DNA from: a virus
DNA: 21,789 bases
IMG/VR virus record: IMGVR_UViG_3300023184_000575
Location: 1 to 21,789 of that record
Reading direction: 5' to 3' (one strand)
Shown piece by piece: positions 2,099 to 17,052 of the stretch. Below the pieces are notes generated by a model, which had not been told where the DNA came from, searched no databases, and saw only the letters and a program-made list of their open reading frames with translations. The translations under genes were made by a program, and so were the position numbers. Numbering within the stretch: position 1 is the first letter of the stretch; every line of letters starts with the position of its first letter.

Positions 2099-4051
2099 TT
2101 ACGCCTGTTGACGATTGTTTTGTGCGGCATTTCTAGCAGTGAAATCAAAGCGATTTACTGCTTTACCGTAGCCTGCAGGCGTGGCCATCACCCATCCTTC
2201 ATGCCCAGGATCTTTCAAATCCAAGTTACGTAGTATGTCCAGCTTTAAATCATGTAACAACAAAAATAAAGTAAATGCAGCAGCCAGGCCTTCTGTGTTT
2301 GATGCAGGACTTTTTAAATATTCTACAATGTTGTTGAACTTTTTAGAAGTTACTGCACTCTGTAGAAACTGGCCAAAATCACCTATCAAGTTAGAAAAGT
2401 CTCCAGTATACCCTGCATAGTCTGGATTGATACGTTTGTTGATGTAATCTACACACAGTTTGGCCAAGTCGGTGATTTGCATGGCTCGCAGTTCTGCAGG
2501 ATTAAACAAGGTATCAATGGCAGCACCTTTGCTGTTGCGTATTTGTTTGATTTGCTTGATCAATGCCGCTTGCCCTTTAGACTGTGCAGGATCTTGAGGT
2601 GTGATACCTTTGCCGTAAATGGGTTCAATCAGCAACAGTCCAGGTACTTCATTGAATGACACTCTGCTGAGTGGTTGTTTGGGCTCGCCTTGATCAGCAT
2701 ACATGGTGTGCATGGCAATGCCTGTAGTGCTGTTGCGAATTCGTTGGCCTAGTGCGCTCTTGGCAGGTATACGATATTGCACTGTGTTGGGTTTGAACAC
2801 AAGGTTACCGGCCTGTTCTTCCCAGGGCTGTTGCGGGTAGTATAGTAAGTCGCCTTTAACATATCCACGGAAGTTAGTGGGTGTGGCAGCTTCTAGTTGT
2901 GGCCAAAGATCAGCATATAATTGAACTAATTCACCACGCTCACCTTTTCGTGTGCTTTGTATTTGTGCCATCATTTGGGGCGAAGTAGCAAGTCCATCAT
3001 ATCCCTTAGCGTCAAATCCCGAGCCATCTGTGAGCACAAACTCTCCTGTGTCGGGCTTACGACCAAAAATTACAGCAGGTTTACCATCCCATTTTACACT
3101 GGTGGTTTTTTGTGGTGCTTCTGCTGCATGTTGGATAATAGCTAGTGCTTCATCTACTCCACGTGAACCTTTACGGAACACAAGATCTTCCAGGTGTTCA
3201 ATGCCTTTGGCTCTGCCACCTACATTGCCTTCTTCTGCTTCGTAAATTTGATATGGGTTTGTTTTTTCAGTTTCGATCAAGGGTTGCATACCTTGATTTA
3301 CAATTCTGTCACGCAGTTTTGCTAAGAAGTTTACTTCTGTATTTTCGTTAACAGCGCCGGGCTCTTGCAGGCCTTCTTTAGCTAGATATTCACGGAAATC
3401 TTTGAGCTTGGCATCGCGGTCTCGGTCACGTGCCAGAGCAGCATAAATGCTTTCTACATTTTTGAGATTTTCTCTAGTGGCAGTTCTGCCCAACAGTGTT
3501 TTGGCCACATAGTCTGGATCCATGCCGCCATCGACCAGCTGATTTGTGGCACGGCTGAACATGCCATTGGCACCCACTTTGAGTCCCAGTTGCTTGGCAA
3601 TTGAACTCATCAGCACATTACGATTCATGCCTTTATAAGCACTATCTTCCGAACCACCGTAGTAGAATTGTCCCCAATCCAAATTAGGGAAGAACATGAA
3701 ATCTGTTTGCACATATCCGTTTTGAGGATTGCCATTGATGGGTGTGCGCAGGTGTACTTCGCCAGCTTTTTTTACCCAGGCTTTGGGATCTTGTCCATGG
3801 CTTACTGCCCATTGTGTGAGCCTTGCTGCCAGTTGTTCTTTAGATATTTCACTGGCATCAACAGCCATATCCATATCGCCTGAGGTGGGTTTGCGACCAG
3901 TTGAGCCTAGCCAACGTTCACGTGGGAATTCTAATCCTGTGAGTGTTTCCAACCACTGCACTGTGGCTGCTACATCACTTTGATTGATGCGGCCTGTTAA
4001 TGGTCGGCCATCAGCATCTTTGAATACGTTACCGCCTTCTAGTAATCTCAT
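2099..4051 (-). CDS. Two-domain nucleotidyltransferase/ligase-like protein (DUF6267-like), 650 aa
   Basis: Two nucleotidyl-transfer signatures are visible. Residues 49-65 read GSTGRKPTSGDMDMAVD, which fits the pol-beta superfamily pattern GS...DxD (D59, D61), with a third carboxylate likely at D117 in GYVQTDFMF. Residues 318-326 read SVKWDGKPA, matching the KxDG nucleotidylation motif of covalent nucleotidyltransferases (ATP-dependent ligases, capping enzymes), with K320 as the candidate AMP-accepting lysine. A motif III-like FRGYVKGDLLYY (394-405) and a basic NLVFKPNTVQYRIPAKS (416-432) follow. From memory the second half resembles the phage family DUF6267; this was not searched. The start ATG 4051 overlaps the upstream stop as ATGA. 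It sits in a late unit, so action on packaged DNA or RNA, or on host RNA late in infection, is possible. Substrate unknown. Confidence 0.8.
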   Translation of the reverse strand: MRLLEGGNVFKDADGRPLTGRINQSDVAATVQWLETLTGLEFPRERWLGSTGRKPTSGDMDMAVDASEISKEQLAARLTQWAVSHGQDPKAWVKKAGEVHLRTPINGNPQNGYVQTDFMFFPNLDWGQFYYGGSEDSAYKGMNRNVLMSSIAKQLGLKVGANGMFSRATNQLVDGGMDPDYVAKTLLGRTATRENLKNVESIYAALARDRDRDAKLKDFREYLAKEGLQEPGAVNENTEVNFLAKLRDRIVNQGMQPLIETEKTNPYQIYEAEEGNVGGRAKGIEHLEDLVFRKGSRGVDEALAIIQHAAEAPQKTTSVKWDGKPAVIFGRKPDTGEFVLTDGSGFDAKGYDGLATSPQMMAQIQSTRKGERGELVQLYADLWPQLEAATPTNFRGYVKGDLLYYPQQPWEEQAGNLVFKPNTVQYRIPAKSALGQRIRNSTTGIAMHTMYADQGEPKQPLSRVSFNEVPGLLLIEPIYGKGITPQDPAQSKGQAALIKQIKQIRNSKGAAIDTLFNPAELRAMQITDLAKLCVDYINKRINPDYAGYTGDFSNLIGDFGQFLQSAVTSKKFNNIVEYLKSPASNTEGLAAAFTLFLLLHDLKLDILRNLDLKDPGHEGWVMATPAGYGKAVNRFDFTARNAAQNNRQQA

Positions 4052-5409
4052 TGAGTTTGTCCTTGTTTCATTCGACGATATAGCTGTTTGCTAGGATCAA
4101 AGTTCTTGCTCCAGATCAAAGATTCGGTTACTTTCTTAACATACGGGTTTGGTCCGCCAGTATTAACTGATGCCCTGCCTGGTGTTTGAACAGTAGGCAA
4201 CGATGTGTTGGTAGTAGCAGATGTTTGTGTTGGTAATACCTGTGAGTCTTGAGTGCGTAAAATAGATGCAGCTACTGCCGCTATTTCGTTACCAAGTCCT
4301 ACAAGTTTCATTTGTTCTGTAGTTTGTTTAACAAGGTTTGCCATGCGTTGTTTTTCTGCTTCATCCGCAGCAGGATCTTGTTCGAGATTCTTTTTCATGT
4401 TCAATGCGTTACGGTAATTGTTTATTGCCTGCTGTTGCGCAGCCTGCCGGTCATTGACTGTTTTCTTTACCAGTTTTACAATGTTGTCAGTATTAATTTG
4501 TAAATTTGATCCTGCTTGATTGATCAAATCAGCGGCAGCTTTAATTTCATTCGGTGCAAGATTAGAAGGTTTCTGATTCAAAGTTTTTTGATTTAGCCAT
4601 TCACGACTGAGTTGTGAAGCAATCGCAGCTTCTTGTTGGTTAATAGCTGTAGTACCTTGTCCCAATCTAGTAGCCATGTGGCCGCCAGGATGCCAGCCTG
4701 TGGTTCCACCTTGCTGGTCTAAAGGAATGCCAGCAGCATTCATTGTTTTGTTAGCAAAGTACTCTGCTGCATTTCTCATGAATCCTGCTTTTCCTGGCGC
4801 AGTTGTAGCAGCCGGAGTGGCGGGTTGGTTCTGTGCTGCTTGTTGTGCGGTCCATGCCTGGGCTTCTTTACTGCCGCCTGGTTTTACATTGGGATTTACT
4901 GGCTTCCACGGTTTAGCCGCAGGGGCCGCTGCTGCCGCAGGGGCCGCTGCTGCCGCAGGCGTAGGTGCTGGTGCTGCCGCTGGTGCTGGTGCTGCCGCTG
5001 GTGCTGGTGCAGCCGCTGGTGCAGCCGCTGGTGCTGGTAGTGATTTTCTATTGGTGATATCTTTAGCGTCAACATCAATTACATTAGGATCATATTGATT
5101 TGATCTGCTAGTAGCAGGTGCTACCTGACCAGTTTTGGGTGGTGCAGTTGCTGCGCCACCAGTGGGAATTGTTGCAAGATTGGTACCCGGTGCTTTTGCT
5201 ACCGCAGTTGTTGTAGGAACCACAGCAAGATTTGTGCCTGGGGCCGCCGCAGCCTTGGGCATCATGTTTGGTGCAAATGTCACTTTGCTTGGGGCCACAG
5301 TCTGTTGTGGCATGGCCACTGTGGTTCTACCAAAGTTCACAGGATCAGTTGCCACATTCTTGAGTGGGCCTTCGTTTATATTGCGGCGTGTGATTTCATG
5401 TATCTGCAT
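4048..5409 (-). CDS. Ala/Pro-repeat protein, 453 aa, probable late virion protein
   Basis: The N-terminus MQIHEITRRNINEGPLKNVA is followed by a disordered region with AAAPGTNLAVVP-type near repeats (about residues 50-85). A long Ala/Pro tract of PAAAPAP type spans about residues 124-165, encoded by 18-bp tandem repeats. A helical Gln/Asn/Ala-rich part follows (about 205-375). The C-terminus ends ESLIWSKNFDPSKQLYRRMK, a compact motif that looks conserved. No enzyme motif is seen. It lies between a small helical gene (14-nt overlap) and the nucleotidyltransferase/ligase-like gene (ATGA overlap), so all three are probably made together from the late promoter near 5665. An internal head or tail-associated role is a guess from low complexity and late context. 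Confidence 0.78.
   Translation of the reverse strand: MQIHEITRRNINEGPLKNVATDPVNFGRTTVAMPQQTVAPSKVTFAPNMMPKAAAAPGTNLAVVPTTTAVAKAPGTNLATIPTGGAATAPPKTGQVAPATSRSNQYDPNVIDVDAKDITNRKSLPAPAAAPAAAPAPAAAPAPAAAPAPTPAAAAAPAAAAAPAAKPWKPVNPNVKPGGSKEAQAWTAQQAAQNQPATPAATTAPGKAGFMRNAAEYFANKTMNAAGIPLDQQGGTTGWHPGGHMATRLGQGTTAINQQEAAIASQLSREWLNQKTLNQKPSNLAPNEIKAAADLINQAGSNLQINTDNIVKLVKKTVNDRQAAQQQAINNYRNALNMKKNLEQDPAADEAEKQRMANLVKQTTEQMKLVGLGNEIAAVAASILRTQDSQVLPTQTSATTNTSLPTVQTPGRASVNTGGPNPYVKKVTESLIWSKNFDPSKQLYRRMKQGQTQ
4916..5037 (-). repeat. 18-bp in-frame tandem repeats encoding the Ala/Pro tract
   Basis: Two arrays with 18-bp period lie side by side. One has unit GCCGCAGGGGCCGCTGCT (4916-4951, two full copies). 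The other has unit GGTGCTGGTGCTGCCGCT (about 4964-5037, roughly four copies with single-base changes), written on the plus strand. Both encode Ala-rich or Ala/Pro hexapeptides in the minus-strand gene. Copy number is likely to change by slippage. Confidence 0.8.
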
Positions 5410-5644
5410 TTGTTCTTCTCACTGATCTGGCAAACTTTCCCGAGTCTCTGGTACGAATAGCATTCAGCAATTTACGTTGTAGATTTTCAGCTTGATCAGC
5501 TGGAAATTCTGTGTCAATTTGTTCTAGCAACCTAATAGCATTAGCAATAAGTGTAGCCGCACGGTTTTCAATTAACAGGCGGCGATCACGCTCGATGTAC
5601 AAATCGTCTAATTCTTCTAATAAACTGCGAGTGCGTTTTTGCAT
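5396..5644 (-). CDS. Small helical protein, 82 aa
   Basis: An 82-aa, highly charged, all-helical protein (RSLLEELDDLYIERDRRLLI, then AIRLLEQIDTEFP) with a basic C-terminus (SGKFARSVRRTN). No Cys or Trp. Start ATG 5644 follows a CAAAGG ribosome site and a double late motif. It is the first gene of a late unit running through the Ala/Pro-repeat and nucleotidyltransferase/ligase-like genes. It looks like a small structural or chaperone-like protein of the kind I recall from marine T4-like phages; its function is unknown. Confidence 0.78.
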   Translation of the reverse strand: MQKRTRSLLEELDDLYIERDRRLLIENRAATLIANAIRLLEQIDTEFPADQAENLQRKLLNAIRTRDSGKFARSVRRTNADT

Positions 5645-5664
5645 CTGCTTTTGGACCTTTGAAT

Positions 5665-5675
5665 TATTTATTTAA
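5665..5675 (-). promoter_or_regulatory. Late promoter, overlapping TTAAATA and AATAAATA motifs (leadered)
   Basis: On the minus strand the sequence TTAAATAAATA holds two overlapping late-type cores. The downstream one ends 20 nt before ATG 5644, with a CAAAGG ribosome site between. It lies in a 64-nt divergent gap opposite the plus-strand late motif at 5698-5704. Confidence 0.6.
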
Positions 5676-5697
5676 ATTTACACATACAACTTGGTAA

Positions 5698-5704
5698 TTA
5701 AATA
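5698..5704 (+). promoter_or_regulatory. Late promoter motif TTAAATA, 4 nt before ATG 5709
   Basis: TTAAATA, then CCCT, then ATG of the radical SAM gene on the plus strand. No room exists for a ribosome site, so a leaderless late transcript is predicted. This motif also argues against the in-frame TTG at 5691 as the start. Confidence 0.65.
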
Positions 5705-5708
5705 CCCT

Positions 5709-6761
5709 ATGAACAACTACTTTTGCGTTTTGCCATTTTATGGTGTTGAAATTGGACACAATATTTCTAAAAATATACACTGTTGTGAACTGCCTGCAGG
5801 CACAGATATTAAGAAAGTCCAAGAATCAATTGTTGCTCAACAAAGATCGCCATCCTGTTACAGGTGTTGGCAACTGGAAGATCAAGGACTCACAAGTTCG
5901 CGCAAATTACACAATCAATCATTTGATTTTTATCTCAATCGAGACTTAGAAAAAATTGAACAAGATGCAATAAATCATCTCAATCAACCACAAATTATAA
6001 AAATACACACCAGCAATCTTTGCAACGGAACTTGTGTTACTTGCAACAGTATTTTAAGTTCTGCGTGGGCGTCGCTAGAAAACAAACAAATCAACTATAA
6101 TAAAATTTCTACCAAGCTGATTGAAAGCATAAACTGGGCAGATGTCAAACAGTTGACATTTGTTGGTGGCGAACCTCTTTTGGAAAAACTCAATTTTGAA
6201 ATTTTAAACTTGTTGCTTGATTCAGGTAACACCAGTTGTTTTATATCTATTGTGACCAATGGCAGTTGTGCATTAACACCTGGCCAGTTTGAAACACTGA
6301 GTCAATTTACAAATCTAAATATCTGTCTTAGCATTGATGGTGTTGGTCCAAGATTTGAGTACATTAGATATCCATTAAGTTGGGATTTGTTGTGCGAAAA
6401 TTTAGAAAAGTTTAGAAAGATCACCAGCAACATTAGTGTAAATGCTACTATTTCAAATCTCAATATATTTTACTACAGTGAATTGATAGAATTTTTTAAC
6501 GCCCATCAGTTGAATTACATGTGCAGACATGTTGAATTTCCTTTGTATTTTTCACCGGGTAACTTGCCAGATGCGTTCAAACAACAGGTGTTAGAAAACA
6601 ATCCTCAGTATCACGATCAGGTAAAAAGTTTTCTTGGTACAGGACATTATAGTGCCAGCTTGTTTGCAAAATTTTGTCAAGAAATTCGACGGCAAGATAA
6701 TTTGAAAAAGATTTCAATTTCAGATTATCTACCACTGGATTTTTATCAAAATTTAGCGTGA
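5709..6761 (+). CDS. Twitch-type radical SAM enzyme A, 350 aa
   Basis: A radical SAM protein: the 4Fe-4S motif CX3CX2C is NLCNGTCVTCNS (C105, C109, C112), and the SAM-binding GGEP motif is at 153-156 (FVGGEPLL). The barrel continues with VTNGS and LNICLSIDGVGPRFEYIRYP. The N-terminal part carries extra paired cysteines (HCC at 24-26, and CYRCWQLE from C50), as in the phage/bacterial twitch-domain radical SAM group (shortened SPASM-like auxiliary cluster). I chose ATG 5709 because the late motif abuts it. It is one of only two plus-strand genes and faces the second radical SAM gene tail to tail with 3 nt between stops. The substrate is unknown; peptide or small-molecule modification late in infection is inference. 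Confidence 0.85.
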   Translation: MNNYFCVLPFYGVEIGHNISKNIHCCELPAGTDIKKVQESIVAQQRSPSCYRCWQLEDQGLTSSRKLHNQSFDFYLNRDLEKIEQDAINHLNQPQIIKIHTSNLCNGTCVTCNSILSSAWASLENKQINYNKISTKLIESINWADVKQLTFVGGEPLLEKLNFEILNLLLDSGNTSCFISIVTNGSCALTPGQFETLSQFTNLNICLSIDGVGPRFEYIRYPLSWDLLCENLEKFRKITSNISVNATISNLNIFYYSELIEFFNAHQLNYMCRHVEFPLYFSPGNLPDAFKQQVLENNPQYHDQVKSFLGTGHYSASLFAKFCQEIRRQDNLKKISISDYLPLDFYQNLA

Positions 6762-6764
6762 TGT

Positions 6765-7901
6765 TTAAAGATATCGTTTGTAAAACTCTGCAACTTCGGG
6801 AAAAGTTTTTTTCCAATCTTGATTTCTAATGATATCAAACTTTGCAGTTTCTTGAACAAACTGTTTTATTGCCACTGGGTCTTCTTGCCAATACTTTCCA
6901 ATTATATTGTTTGATGGAGTATGTGCAATTGCATCGGCATATTCTTGTGTGATGTTTTTGGGATACAAGTACGAATGCATGGCCAATTGAGTGCTGTGGC
7001 CAATTGGATCTCCATCTCTGTTGCTGTTGAAATTTTGTTTTACCCAATCACTAACTTGATCAAAATAATACAAGTTCAAACAACTGGTACATTCTTGCAC
7101 AAAAAACATCACATTACTTGGCAAATTTTCTCGTAAAGCTAAAATGTTATCAACAGTTTGATTCCAACTTGCTGGCCATCTCAAGTATTCAAATTTATCA
7201 CCAATGCCATCAATGCTGATCATTAGTTTAACTAACTTGAATTTTTCAATCACATCATACCATTGCGGATCAATAGATTGTGTTCCATTGGTTTGAAATG
7301 CCAGTTCCAATTTGGTTTTTGCATTTGGCACATGTTCTGCCAGCCACTGAGCAGTTTTCCAATAGGTGTTGCCCAACAATGTTTCACCACCGCAGAATTG
7401 CACCATTTCAAGACTGTCAAGATTCAAACTTTCCAAGATGTTGGTAACACGATTGGCATTGTCCGTTGGTATAATTTCAAAAACAGGTAAATTGTTTTCT
7501 TTAAGATGCTTGGACCATAAAGTACTGGATCTTGGTCCGCATGTTCTGCAGGCCAAATTGCAACTGCGATCAAACAACAAATCAATGCGTTGAGGCCCAC
7601 TTAAATTTTTATGGACTCCAAATTTTTCCAGCATTGATTTTCTAAAACTTTTAAGTCCAACTTTTTCCAATGTTAAACATTGGTAGCAACCCGATAACCA
7701 TTGATTGTTATCATTGGCTGTGCGATTTTTTGTAAAATCACTGCCGTTCCAGTCTATGCTATCTTTGTTGACAAATGTCAATGGAGTATTGCTAAGACAG
7801 CATTGATTGTATCCAAGCTCGGTTGTTTGATTTAATTCATTGCTGAGTTTCAAATCAATATTGAGCCCGCCATGAATCATTGGACAAAATGTATCGGTCA
7901 T
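6765..7901 (-). CDS. Twitch-type radical SAM enzyme B, 378 aa
   Basis: The radical SAM motif CX3CX2C is SCNLACRTCG (C114, C118, C121), with GGET at 171-174 (FCGGETLLG), FQTNGTQ and a matching MISIDGIGDKFEYLRWP segment. The N-terminal part has QCCLSN (C34, C35) and CYQCLTLE (C72, C75), so its layout matches enzyme A, and the two are clear relatives. ATG 7901 overlaps the gp41-like helicase stop as ATGA, so translation is probably coupled to the helicase and the gene belongs to the primase-helicase early unit. Having a radical SAM enzyme as the third gene of a replication operon is unusual for T4 itself. Its substrate cannot be read from the sequence. Confidence 0.85.
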   Translation of the reverse strand: MTDTFCPMIHGGLNIDLKLSNELNQTTELGYNQCCLSNTPLTFVNKDSIDWNGSDFTKNRTANDNNQWLSGCYQCLTLEKVGLKSFRKSMLEKFGVHKNLSGPQRIDLLFDRSCNLACRTCGPRSSTLWSKHLKENNLPVFEIIPTDNANRVTNILESLNLDSLEMVQFCGGETLLGNTYWKTAQWLAEHVPNAKTKLELAFQTNGTQSIDPQWYDVIEKFKLVKLMISIDGIGDKFEYLRWPASWNQTVDNILALRENLPSNVMFFVQECTSCLNLYYFDQVSDWVKQNFNSNRDGDPIGHSTQLAMHSYLYPKNITQEYADAIAHTPSNNIIGKYWQEDPVAIKQFVQETAKFDIIRNQDWKKTFPEVAEFYKRYL

Positions 7902-15993: not shown

Positions 15994-17052
15994 TTATCCA
16001 ATTTGTAACGTCTCTTTGTATACATCATGCTTGACAGGTAAATTGTCAAACCATTTTTCGTTTCGATAGTTGTCTTGAATCATTTGTTGAGCCAAAAAGC
16101 GATACCAGTTTGTTGAATTATAGCGTTGATTGCGCAAAACGTCAACTGCTCTTTGCATGTTAAACTTTTCAGCAAACTTTGACTGTTCTAGCATGGCAAT
16201 TAGAGAAGGACGATACTGATTTGGAATACTTTCCAGACCAATGACCGAGTCCACATTGGCTAACACTGGTTCAAATTGGTCTGGAGTTAACCATGCAAAG
16301 TATTCTAACAACTCAGGCAGCCACCAAATGTTAATAGCACTGATTACCGTAGCAATTCTAATATTGCAATTTGGTTGCGTGAGAACCCAGTTTAAATTGG
16401 ACTCCACAGTGTTCCAGTCACTGCCACTGCGAACTATGCCAGCATACTTGCCCACTGCATCTATACTTGCATGAACGTTAATGCGGCTGAATGATGGCCA
16501 CAGATCTTTTACATGCTTTGATTTAGCCCCCAACACAGTCATGTTGGTACTGTACATTATGGCAGGGTCAGCACCTTGTGCAATTAGTTTTTCGAGCACT
16601 TGGTAATGTTGCGGGTTTAGCAGTGGCTCGCCCCCTGCAAAATAAATTTGTTTGCACTCACTTAGATCCATGTCTGCAACATTGATTGGATTGTATAAAC
16701 TTATATCTTCTACCCCAGCTTCACTAGACCAACTGGTGCTGAAGCCCGGCCCACAACTACGGCACTTTAAATTGCAAAGATTGTTGTTGCGAAAATCTAA
16801 AAAATTTATCTTGTGTGTTTTGTAGTCTGTTTCATACTCGCTATACATTCCGCGCCAACCTAATTCGCCTGGAGGACAAGGATTGGCGCATTCTTTTGGT
16901 ACTTCACCGCGTAAGAATGCACCACCGACTGTCTCAGTCATTTCTTCGCGACTGTTAAATTTGGCACCGCCCCATGCACAGCAAGGAGTATATTTGCCAC
17001 CCGGCATGTAGCTTACACTGGTCCAGGGTGCTTTGCAATAAACATTATTCAT
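15994..17052 (-). CDS. Twitch-type radical SAM enzyme C, 352 aa
   Basis: CX3CX2C is NNLCNLKCRSCGPGFSTSW (C93, C97, C100), with GGEP at 140-143 (YFAGGEPLLNPQ), a MYSTNMTVLG segment and INVHASIDAVGKYAGIVRSG. The N-terminus CKAPWTSVSYMPGGKYTPCC (C6, C24, C25) and the CANPCPPGELGWRG segment (C55, C59) are the extra cysteine pattern of twitch-domain radical SAM proteins. It is more distant from enzymes A and B than they are from each other: it lacks 'CYxC..LE' and the 'RFEYxRxP' segment is different. The start ATG 17052 overlaps the upstream gene by 8 nt. It belongs to an early-type operon just before the gp62-like gene. Substrate unknown. Confidence 0.86.
   Translation of the reverse strand: MNNVYCKAPWTSVSYMPGGKYTPCCAWGGAKFNSREEMTETVGGAFLRGEVPKECANPCPPGELGWRGMYSEYETDYKTHKINFLDFRNNNLCNLKCRSCGPGFSTSWSSEAGVEDISLYNPINVADMDLSECKQIYFAGGEPLLNPQHYQVLEKLIAQGADPAIMYSTNMTVLGAKSKHVKDLWPSFSRINVHASIDAVGKYAGIVRSGSDWNTVESNLNWVLTQPNCNIRIATVISAINIWWLPELLEYFAWLTPDQFEPVLANVDSVIGLESIPNQYRPSLIAMLEQSKFAEKFNMQRAVDVLRNQRYNSTNWYRFLAQQMIQDNYRNEKWFDNLPVKHDVYKETLQIG

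What the first reader, a model, noticed from the sequence alone, without database searches (positions are those of the whole stretch)
2099..4051. One protein with both a pol-beta-type and a ligase-type nucleotidyl-transfer signature
GSTGRKPTSGDMDMAVD with D59/D61 and a later D117 fits a pol-beta nucleotidyltransferase. SVKWDGKPA fits the KxDG motif of covalent nucleotidyltransferases. These are two unrelated ways of moving a nucleotide, in one late-expressed chain of 650 aa. It could be an end-repair enzyme that adds nucleotides and then seals, or a capping-type enzyme.
Basis: partly seen in the sequence, partly recalled or inferred. Interest (0 to 1): 0.62.

Follow-up and report, generated by a model that had tools for sequence, protein, structure and literature searches.

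The report
Phage nucleotide-adding and ligase-like fusion enzyme
A family of large freshwater viruses of bacteria makes one protein that joins a nucleotide-adding domain to a strand-sealing (ligase-like) domain, probably to repair broken nucleic-acid ends, and its start carries a tag suggesting that it is packed inside the virus particle and injected into the next cell.

Summary
The gene is on the minus strand, complement(2099..4051), 650 aa. Residues 6-230 form a pol-beta-type nucleotidyltransferase: G49, S50, D59, D61, D117 are invariant in 113-114 distinct relatives, and Foldseek matches human Pol lambda, mu and beta. Residues 284-641 are Pfam DUF6267: K320-x-D322-G323, D401, E618-G619 and K630 are invariant in 68 domains (most 19-33% identical to ours), i.e. 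motifs I, III, IV, V of covalent nucleotidyltransferases; the model matches ATP-dependent ligases, moderately. The pairing is not chance: fused in 139 sampled loci, split into neighbouring genes in 8, and in jumbo phages the stand-alone nucleotidyltransferase sits by a divergent KxDG protein related to DUF6267. Best explanation: an add-then-seal end-repair enzyme, working like RlaP plus RNA ligase but not RlaP by sequence. Unexpected: all 37 distinct leaders end (L/I/V)-x-E before GG, like the leaders of T4 Alt and gp24; relatives encode the T4-type prohead protease and gp23; the operon has a conserved T4-type late promoter. So the enzyme is probably packaged and injected. Motifs, fold and pairing are computed results; activity, RNA-or-DNA substrate and packaging are inferred.

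The parts
2099..4051 (-). Whole gene, 650 aa: pol-beta-type nucleotidyltransferase fused to DUF6267 ligase-like domain
   Evidence: ORF and translation; DUF6267 E 3.2e-29; AlphaFold2 pLDDT 88.8
4037..4051 (-). Leader MRLLE (residues 1-5), predicted to be cut after E5, leaving mature N-terminus GGN
   Evidence: 37/37 distinct leaders end (L/I/V)-x-E before GG; T4 Alt starts MELITE, gp24 MAKINELLRE. Cleavage itself inferred
3362..4036 (-). Pol-beta-type nucleotidyltransferase domain, residues 6-230
   Evidence: Invariant residues; Foldseek to Pol lambda, mu, beta
3869..3907 (-). Motif GSTGRKPTSGDMD, residues 49-61 (D59, D61)
   Evidence: Invariant G49 S50 D59 D61
3701..3703 (-). Third carboxylate D117
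   Evidence: 114/114 distinct relatives
3227..3292 (-). Low-confidence linker, residues 254-275
   Evidence: pLDDT below 50
2129..3202 (-). DUF6267 ligase-like domain, residues 284-641
   Evidence: Pfam; model pLDDT 90.9, pTM 0.87; Foldseek ligases
3083..3094 (-). Motif I, K320-W-D-G323
   Evidence: Invariant
2840..2866 (-). Motif III-like GYVKGDLLY, residues 396-404 with D401
   Evidence: D401 invariant
2213..2590 (-). Helical insertion, residues 488-613
   Evidence: Secondary structure of the model
2189..2200 (-). Motif IV-like E618-G-W-V621
   Evidence: E618, G619 invariant
2150..2164 (-). Motif V-like K630-A-V-N-R634
   Evidence: K630, R634 invariant
4048..5409 (-). Upstream gene of the same operon, 453 aa, Ala/Pro-rich, starts MQIHEITRRNINEG
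   Evidence: Overlaps the start of the finding's gene by 4 bases; similar starts in relatives
5396..5644 (-). First gene of the operon, 82 aa
   Evidence: ORF; homologues in relatives
5665..5672 (-). Late-promoter-like AATAAATA
   Evidence: Position conserved in relatives

Best explanation
The protein is a two-domain nucleic-acid end-repair enzyme of T4-like freshwater phages. SHOWN by computation: (1) an N-terminal pol-beta-type nucleotidyltransferase with intact catalytic residues; (2) a C-terminal DUF6267 domain with invariant ligase motifs I, III, IV and V and a ligase-like predicted fold with a large helical insertion; (3) conserved association of the two, as fusion or neighbouring genes; (4) a leader ending (L/I/V)-x-E before GG, and a late promoter. 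INFERRED: the pol-beta domain adds missing nucleotides to a broken 3' end; the DUF6267 domain takes AMP from ATP onto K320, passes it to a 5'-phosphate and seals. The likeliest substrate is RNA, for example tRNA cut and trimmed by a host anticodon nuclease (my estimate: RNA 50%, DNA 35%, other 15%). The leader targets the protein into the prohead and is cut after E5; the mature enzyme is injected with the DNA and acts at once in the next cell.
For: Invariant catalytic residues in both domains. Foldseek: Pol lambda, mu, beta at probability 0.97-1.00; DNA ligases up to 0.96 for the C-domain alone. Fused in 139 loci, split neighbours in 8. In Phosso, Atu_ph07 and L169 a KxDG gene overlaps the nucleotidyltransferase gene, in PA5oct it lies about 1.3 kb upstream; this KxDG protein aligns with DUF6267 over 255 columns, motifs in register, P 6e-4, score 35.8 against 18 or less for shuffled controls, and in Atu_ph07 weakly matches Pfam RNA_ligase (E 0.002; 9.8e-4). 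RlaP precedent (PMC7824862). Leader 37/37, T4 leaders, prohead protease and gp23 in relatives, late promoter, PA5oct homologue annotated as structural by ESI-MS/MS.
Against: No activity is known for any member. Ligase fold match is moderate; no sequence-profile signal from DUF6267 to phage DNA ligases, an Rnl2-type pair, T4 rnlB or gp30. Most DUF6267 proteins sampled (cyanophages) lack the nucleotidyltransferase nearby, and some nucleotidyltransferases lack a KxDG partner. The 147-kb relative has no tRNA genes. The PA5oct homologue lacks the leader, so its virion annotation does not test the leader.
Confidence: 0.5

Rival explanations
1. DNA gap-fill-and-seal enzyme: a minimal family-X-like polymerase domain fused to a DNA-ligase-like domain, like the separate small Pol X and ligase of African swine fever virus, repairing breaks in phage DNA, perhaps incoming DNA after injection.
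For: Best solved-structure matches are Pol lambda/mu/beta and ATP-dependent DNA ligases. The gene lies near DnaB-like helicase, primase and UvsW-like helicase genes, and DUF6267 lies in the replication region of cyanophages.
Against: Nine of 15 related or homologue-bearing records already carry a standard ATP-dependent DNA ligase. No OB-fold and no DNA-binding ligase domain. Weak family matches are to RNA ligases. Pfam Pol X palm does not match.
Confidence: 0.28
2. The two domains modify something other than nucleic-acid ends: for example the injected protein nucleotidylates a host protein or a small molecule, or caps RNA.
For: Some pol-beta-fold enzymes modify proteins or drugs (established knowledge). 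In cyanophages DUF6267 is fused to a HIGH-motif cytidylyltransferase-like domain instead, so the partner activity is exchangeable. Leader suggests a capsid location.
Against: Nearest folds are polymerases and polynucleotide ligases; the full motif set is that of end-joining enzymes; no OB-fold as in capping enzymes.
Confidence: 0.15
3. One or both domains are catalytically dead and serve as structural or binding modules of the virion.
For: Leader suggests a capsid location; PA5oct homologue annotated structural.
Against: Catalytic residues are strictly invariant while overall identity falls to 19-33%.
Confidence: 0.07

Closest known systems
RlaP (Pfam PF10127), RNA-ligase-associating pol-beta nucleotidyltransferase, with its RNA ligases
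   Same: Pol-beta nucleotidyltransferase working beside an ATP-dependent ligase; proposed to restore lost nucleotides before sealing (PMC7824862)
   Different: No Pfam RlaP match, no profile signal; true RlaP genes lie elsewhere in Atu_ph07 and Vibrio phage 2.275.O; here both activities are in one chain with a capsid-type leader
DNA polymerase X family (Pol beta, lambda, mu; small viral Pol X)
   Same: Closest solved folds, same catalytic carboxylate pattern
   Different: No Pfam Pol X palm match; no lyase or fingers domain; only one helix before the palm
ATP-dependent DNA and RNA ligases (KxDG covalent nucleotidyltransferases)
   Same: Motifs I, III, IV, V in order with invariant K320, E618, K630; closest solved folds
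   Different: D401 where motif III usually has E; helical insertion before motif IV; no OB-fold; no sequence-profile signal
Pfam DUF6267 / PHROG 455 of cyanophages
   Same: Member by Pfam (E 3.2e-29)
   Different: Cyanophage members are mostly stand-alone or fused to a HIGH-motif cytidylyltransferase-like domain; family has no assigned function
T4 Alt and other capsid-targeted internal proteins
   Same: Short N-terminal leader ending (L/I)-x-E; T4-type protease and gp23 in relatives
   Different: Unrelated enzyme; cleavage and packaging not shown here

Membership tests
Pol-beta nucleotidyltransferase superfamily | G-S ... D-x-D motif plus third carboxylate | tested here: met
   G49 S50 D59 D61 D117 invariant in 113-114 distinct relatives
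Pol-beta nucleotidyltransferase superfamily | Pol-beta fold | tested here: met
   AlphaFold2 model to Pol lambda, mu, beta, probability 0.97-1.00; matched range not printed by the tool
RlaP (PF10127) | Match to the family model | tested here: not met
   Not among matches of P0001 at E up to 1 nor among listed families of 89 relatives; no profile signal
RlaP (PF10127) | Genomic association with an ATP-dependent ligase-type gene | tested here: met
   Fusion, split neighbours, and KxDG neighbours in jumbo phages
DNA polymerase X | Pfam Pol X palm (PF14792) match | tested here: not met
   No match in the nucleotidyltransferase-bearing phage records searched or in P0001; the model also missed its cut-off in all control genomes, so the test is weak
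KxDG covalent nucleotidyltransferases | Motifs I, III, IV, V in order | tested here: met
   K320-x-D-G, D401, E618-G, K630 invariant in 68 domains; motif III has D not E
KxDG covalent nucleotidyltransferases | Ligase nucleotidyltransferase fold | tested here: inconclusive
   Top matches are ligases, probability up to 0.96, but E about 4e-3 and high rmsd
KxDG covalent nucleotidyltransferases | Covalent enzyme-nucleotide intermediate on the motif I lysine | not testable with these tools
   Needs an adenylylation assay
DNA ligases / capping enzymes | C-terminal OB-fold | tested here: not met
   Chain ends about 20 residues after motif V
T4-type capsid-targeted internal proteins | N-terminal leader ending in the protease consensus | tested here: met
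   37/37 leaders; exact T4 consensus (L/I)-x-E from own knowledge, consistent with T4 Alt and gp24 starts
T4-type capsid-targeted internal proteins | Phage encodes a gp21-type protease | tested here: met
   Five of ten related records, E about 1e-24; the window itself is too short to show it
T4-type capsid-targeted internal proteins | Presence in the virion and observed cleavage | not testable with these tools
   Only a PA5oct annotation (ESI-MS/MS), for a homologue without the leader

The most novel reading that the evidence does not exclude
A virion-packaged, injected add-and-seal enzyme: one chain that restores missing nucleotides and re-ligates nucleic acid cut by host defence, delivered with the phage genome before any phage gene is expressed. 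DUF6267, widespread in cyanophages with no assigned function, would be a new ligase family.
Probability: 0.33. Interest if true: 0.85.

Novelty: new variant of a known kind. Interest (0 to 1): 0.64.

Why it matters
DUF6267 has no assigned function, yet 342 phage records and at least 465 IMG/VR stretches here carry a relative of this protein, and no paper in the searched library names the family. The motif set gives it a testable ligase-like function with a named catalytic lysine. Fusion to a pol-beta nucleotidyltransferase, with the split and divergent pairs, argues for a coupled add-then-seal reaction. If the leader prediction is right, phages pre-load the capsid with a repair enzyme, which would show how they could counter fast host nucleases before their own genes are expressed.

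Tried and rejected
RlaP membership by Pfam and profile comparison: not met. CCA-adding enzyme: profile signal at background (P about 0.1). PDB sequence searches with the single protein and with profiles gave nothing or spurious hits. hhalign with untrimmed A8 gave about 99% 'probability' against everything, unrelated families included: an artefact, discarded and redone with trimmed alignments and shuffled controls. DUF6267 against phage DNA ligases, an Rnl2-type pair, T4 rnlB and gp30: no signal. Single-protein scans with Phosso, PA5oct and Vibrio relatives found none; alignment scans worked. Bacterial genomes: no relative by pattern scan, but only two patterns were used. No Pol X alignment could be gathered for a direct profile test. 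Capsid-type leaders on neighbouring genes were seen by eye; their enrichment genome-wide was not tested.

Full report
What is there. The window is a 21.8-kb virus record. The finding is one 650-aa ORF at complement(2099..4051). Its only strong family match is Pfam DUF6267 over residues 284-641, E 3.2e-29, with PHROG 455 (unknown function) agreeing; residues 1-230 match no family.

N-terminal domain. G49, S50, D59, D61 and D117 are invariant in 113-114 distinct relatives. An alignment with stand-alone homologues from jumbo phages (26-28% identity) keeps them, with Q115, M119, G141 and R144. An AlphaFold2 model from 89 relatives (mean pLDDT 88.8) matches human Pol lambda, mu and beta at probability 0.97-1.00. 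The tool does not print the matched range; I assign it to the N-domain because it carries the motif and because the C-domain modelled alone matches ligases instead. The pTM of 0.60 and the low-confidence linker 254-275 mean that the relative placement of the two domains is not predicted.

C-terminal domain. In 68 DUF6267 domains (A8, most 19-33% identical to ours) the invariant residues include K320, D322, G323, D401, E618, G619, K630 and R634. They fall in the order I, III, IV, V of the KxDG nucleotidyltransferases (established knowledge of that superfamily); motif III carries D where ligases usually have E. The domain model (pLDDT 90.9, pTM 0.87) matches ATP-dependent DNA ligases first, archaeal RNA ligases lower in the list, at moderate scores. 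A helical insertion (488-613) separates the motif III region from motif IV, and no OB-fold follows motif V.

Pairing. In the sampled loci 139 carry both domains in one ORF, 8 in separate neighbouring ORFs, 16 the nucleotidyltransferase alone and 163 DUF6267 alone; these counts reflect the queries used and the limited flanks. Among the nucleotidyltransferase-only loci, Phosso, Atu_ph07 and L169 have a KxDG gene overlapping the nucleotidyltransferase gene, and PA5oct has one about 1.3 kb upstream. That protein aligns with DUF6267 over 255 columns with motifs in register, P 6e-4, score 35.8 against 18 or less for five column-shuffled controls. In Atu_ph07 it matches Pfam RNA_ligase below the cut-off (E 0.002; 9.8e-4). 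Another group (L185, L190, L177 and others) shows no KxDG partner in the sequence held; there the gene upstream resembles a 5'-nucleotidase (PF06941, E 3e-5, just below cut-off). In cyanophages DUF6267 is mostly stand-alone, and in some phages it is fused to a HIGH-motif cytidylyltransferase-like domain.

Leader and expression. All 37 distinct leaders end in E before GG, with L (30), I (6) or V (1) at the third position before the cut and a variable residue between; stand-alone jumbo homologues start M-GG, or M-SG in PA5oct. T4 Alt begins MELITE and gp24 MAKINELLRE; N-terminal propeptides of both are removed by gp21 (PMC5694885; Alt also PMC9958956). The T4 consensus (L/I)-x-E itself is from my own knowledge. 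Five of ten related records encode the T4-type prohead protease and gp23. NATAAATA lies about 26-32 nt before the operon's first gene in 39 of 78 distinct upstream sequences, against 0.038 expected per sequence. Late expression is well supported; packaging is a reasoned prediction.

Mechanism. The best explanation is nucleotide addition followed by sealing. Precedents are RlaP beside RNA ligases (PMC7824862) and the host nuclease RloC, which excises the wobble nucleotide so that simple sealing cannot restore the tRNA (PMC2610378). RNA is favoured over DNA because 9 of 15 records searched already carry a standard ATP-dependent DNA ligase, no OB-fold is present, and the weak family matches are to RNA ligases. 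DNA remains possible because the best structural matches are DNA enzymes and the genes lie in a replication region; no tRNA gene was found in the 147-kb relative.

Membership. The N-domain is a pol-beta superfamily member but not RlaP, Pol X or CCA enzyme by the tests available here; the Pol X test was weak. DUF6267 meets the motif definition of the KxDG superfamily; fold evidence is moderate and the covalent intermediate is untested.

Verdict. Observation confirmed; interpretation partly supported and extended by the ligase motifs III, IV, V, the conserved pairing and the capsid-type leader. New variant of a known kind.

Noticed in passing
window 6765-7901 (-), 15994-17052 (-), 5691-6761 (+): Radical SAM genes: 6765-7901 matches the NCBIfam twitch-domain radical SAM family and 15994-17052 a PHROG radical SAM family; the 356-aa ORF 5691-6761 on the opposite strand looks similar by eye but was not tested.
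   Followed up: partly
L271 and L279, ORF 4989-6932: DUF6267 fused to a domain with a HIGH-type motif (GAFKPPHRGH), so the ligase-like domain pairs with a second, unrelated nucleotidyltransferase type; S-PM2 has a similar annotation.
   Followed up: partly
L185, L190, L177, L191 and L170, genes around the nucleotidyltransferase: Several neighbouring genes of unrelated sequence share short starts such as MRAREFI-x-E or MRWHQL-x-E, which look like capsid-targeting leaders and may mark a set of packaged proteins.
   Followed up: no
L185:4306-4986 and similar loci: A 5'-nucleotidase-like gene (PF06941 just below cut-off) lies directly upstream of stand-alone nucleotidyltransferases.
   Followed up: no
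window 4048-5409 (-): Ala/Pro-rich 453-aa protein upstream in the same operon; homologues vary greatly in length and sequence but mostly keep a MQIHEI-type start.
   Followed up: partly
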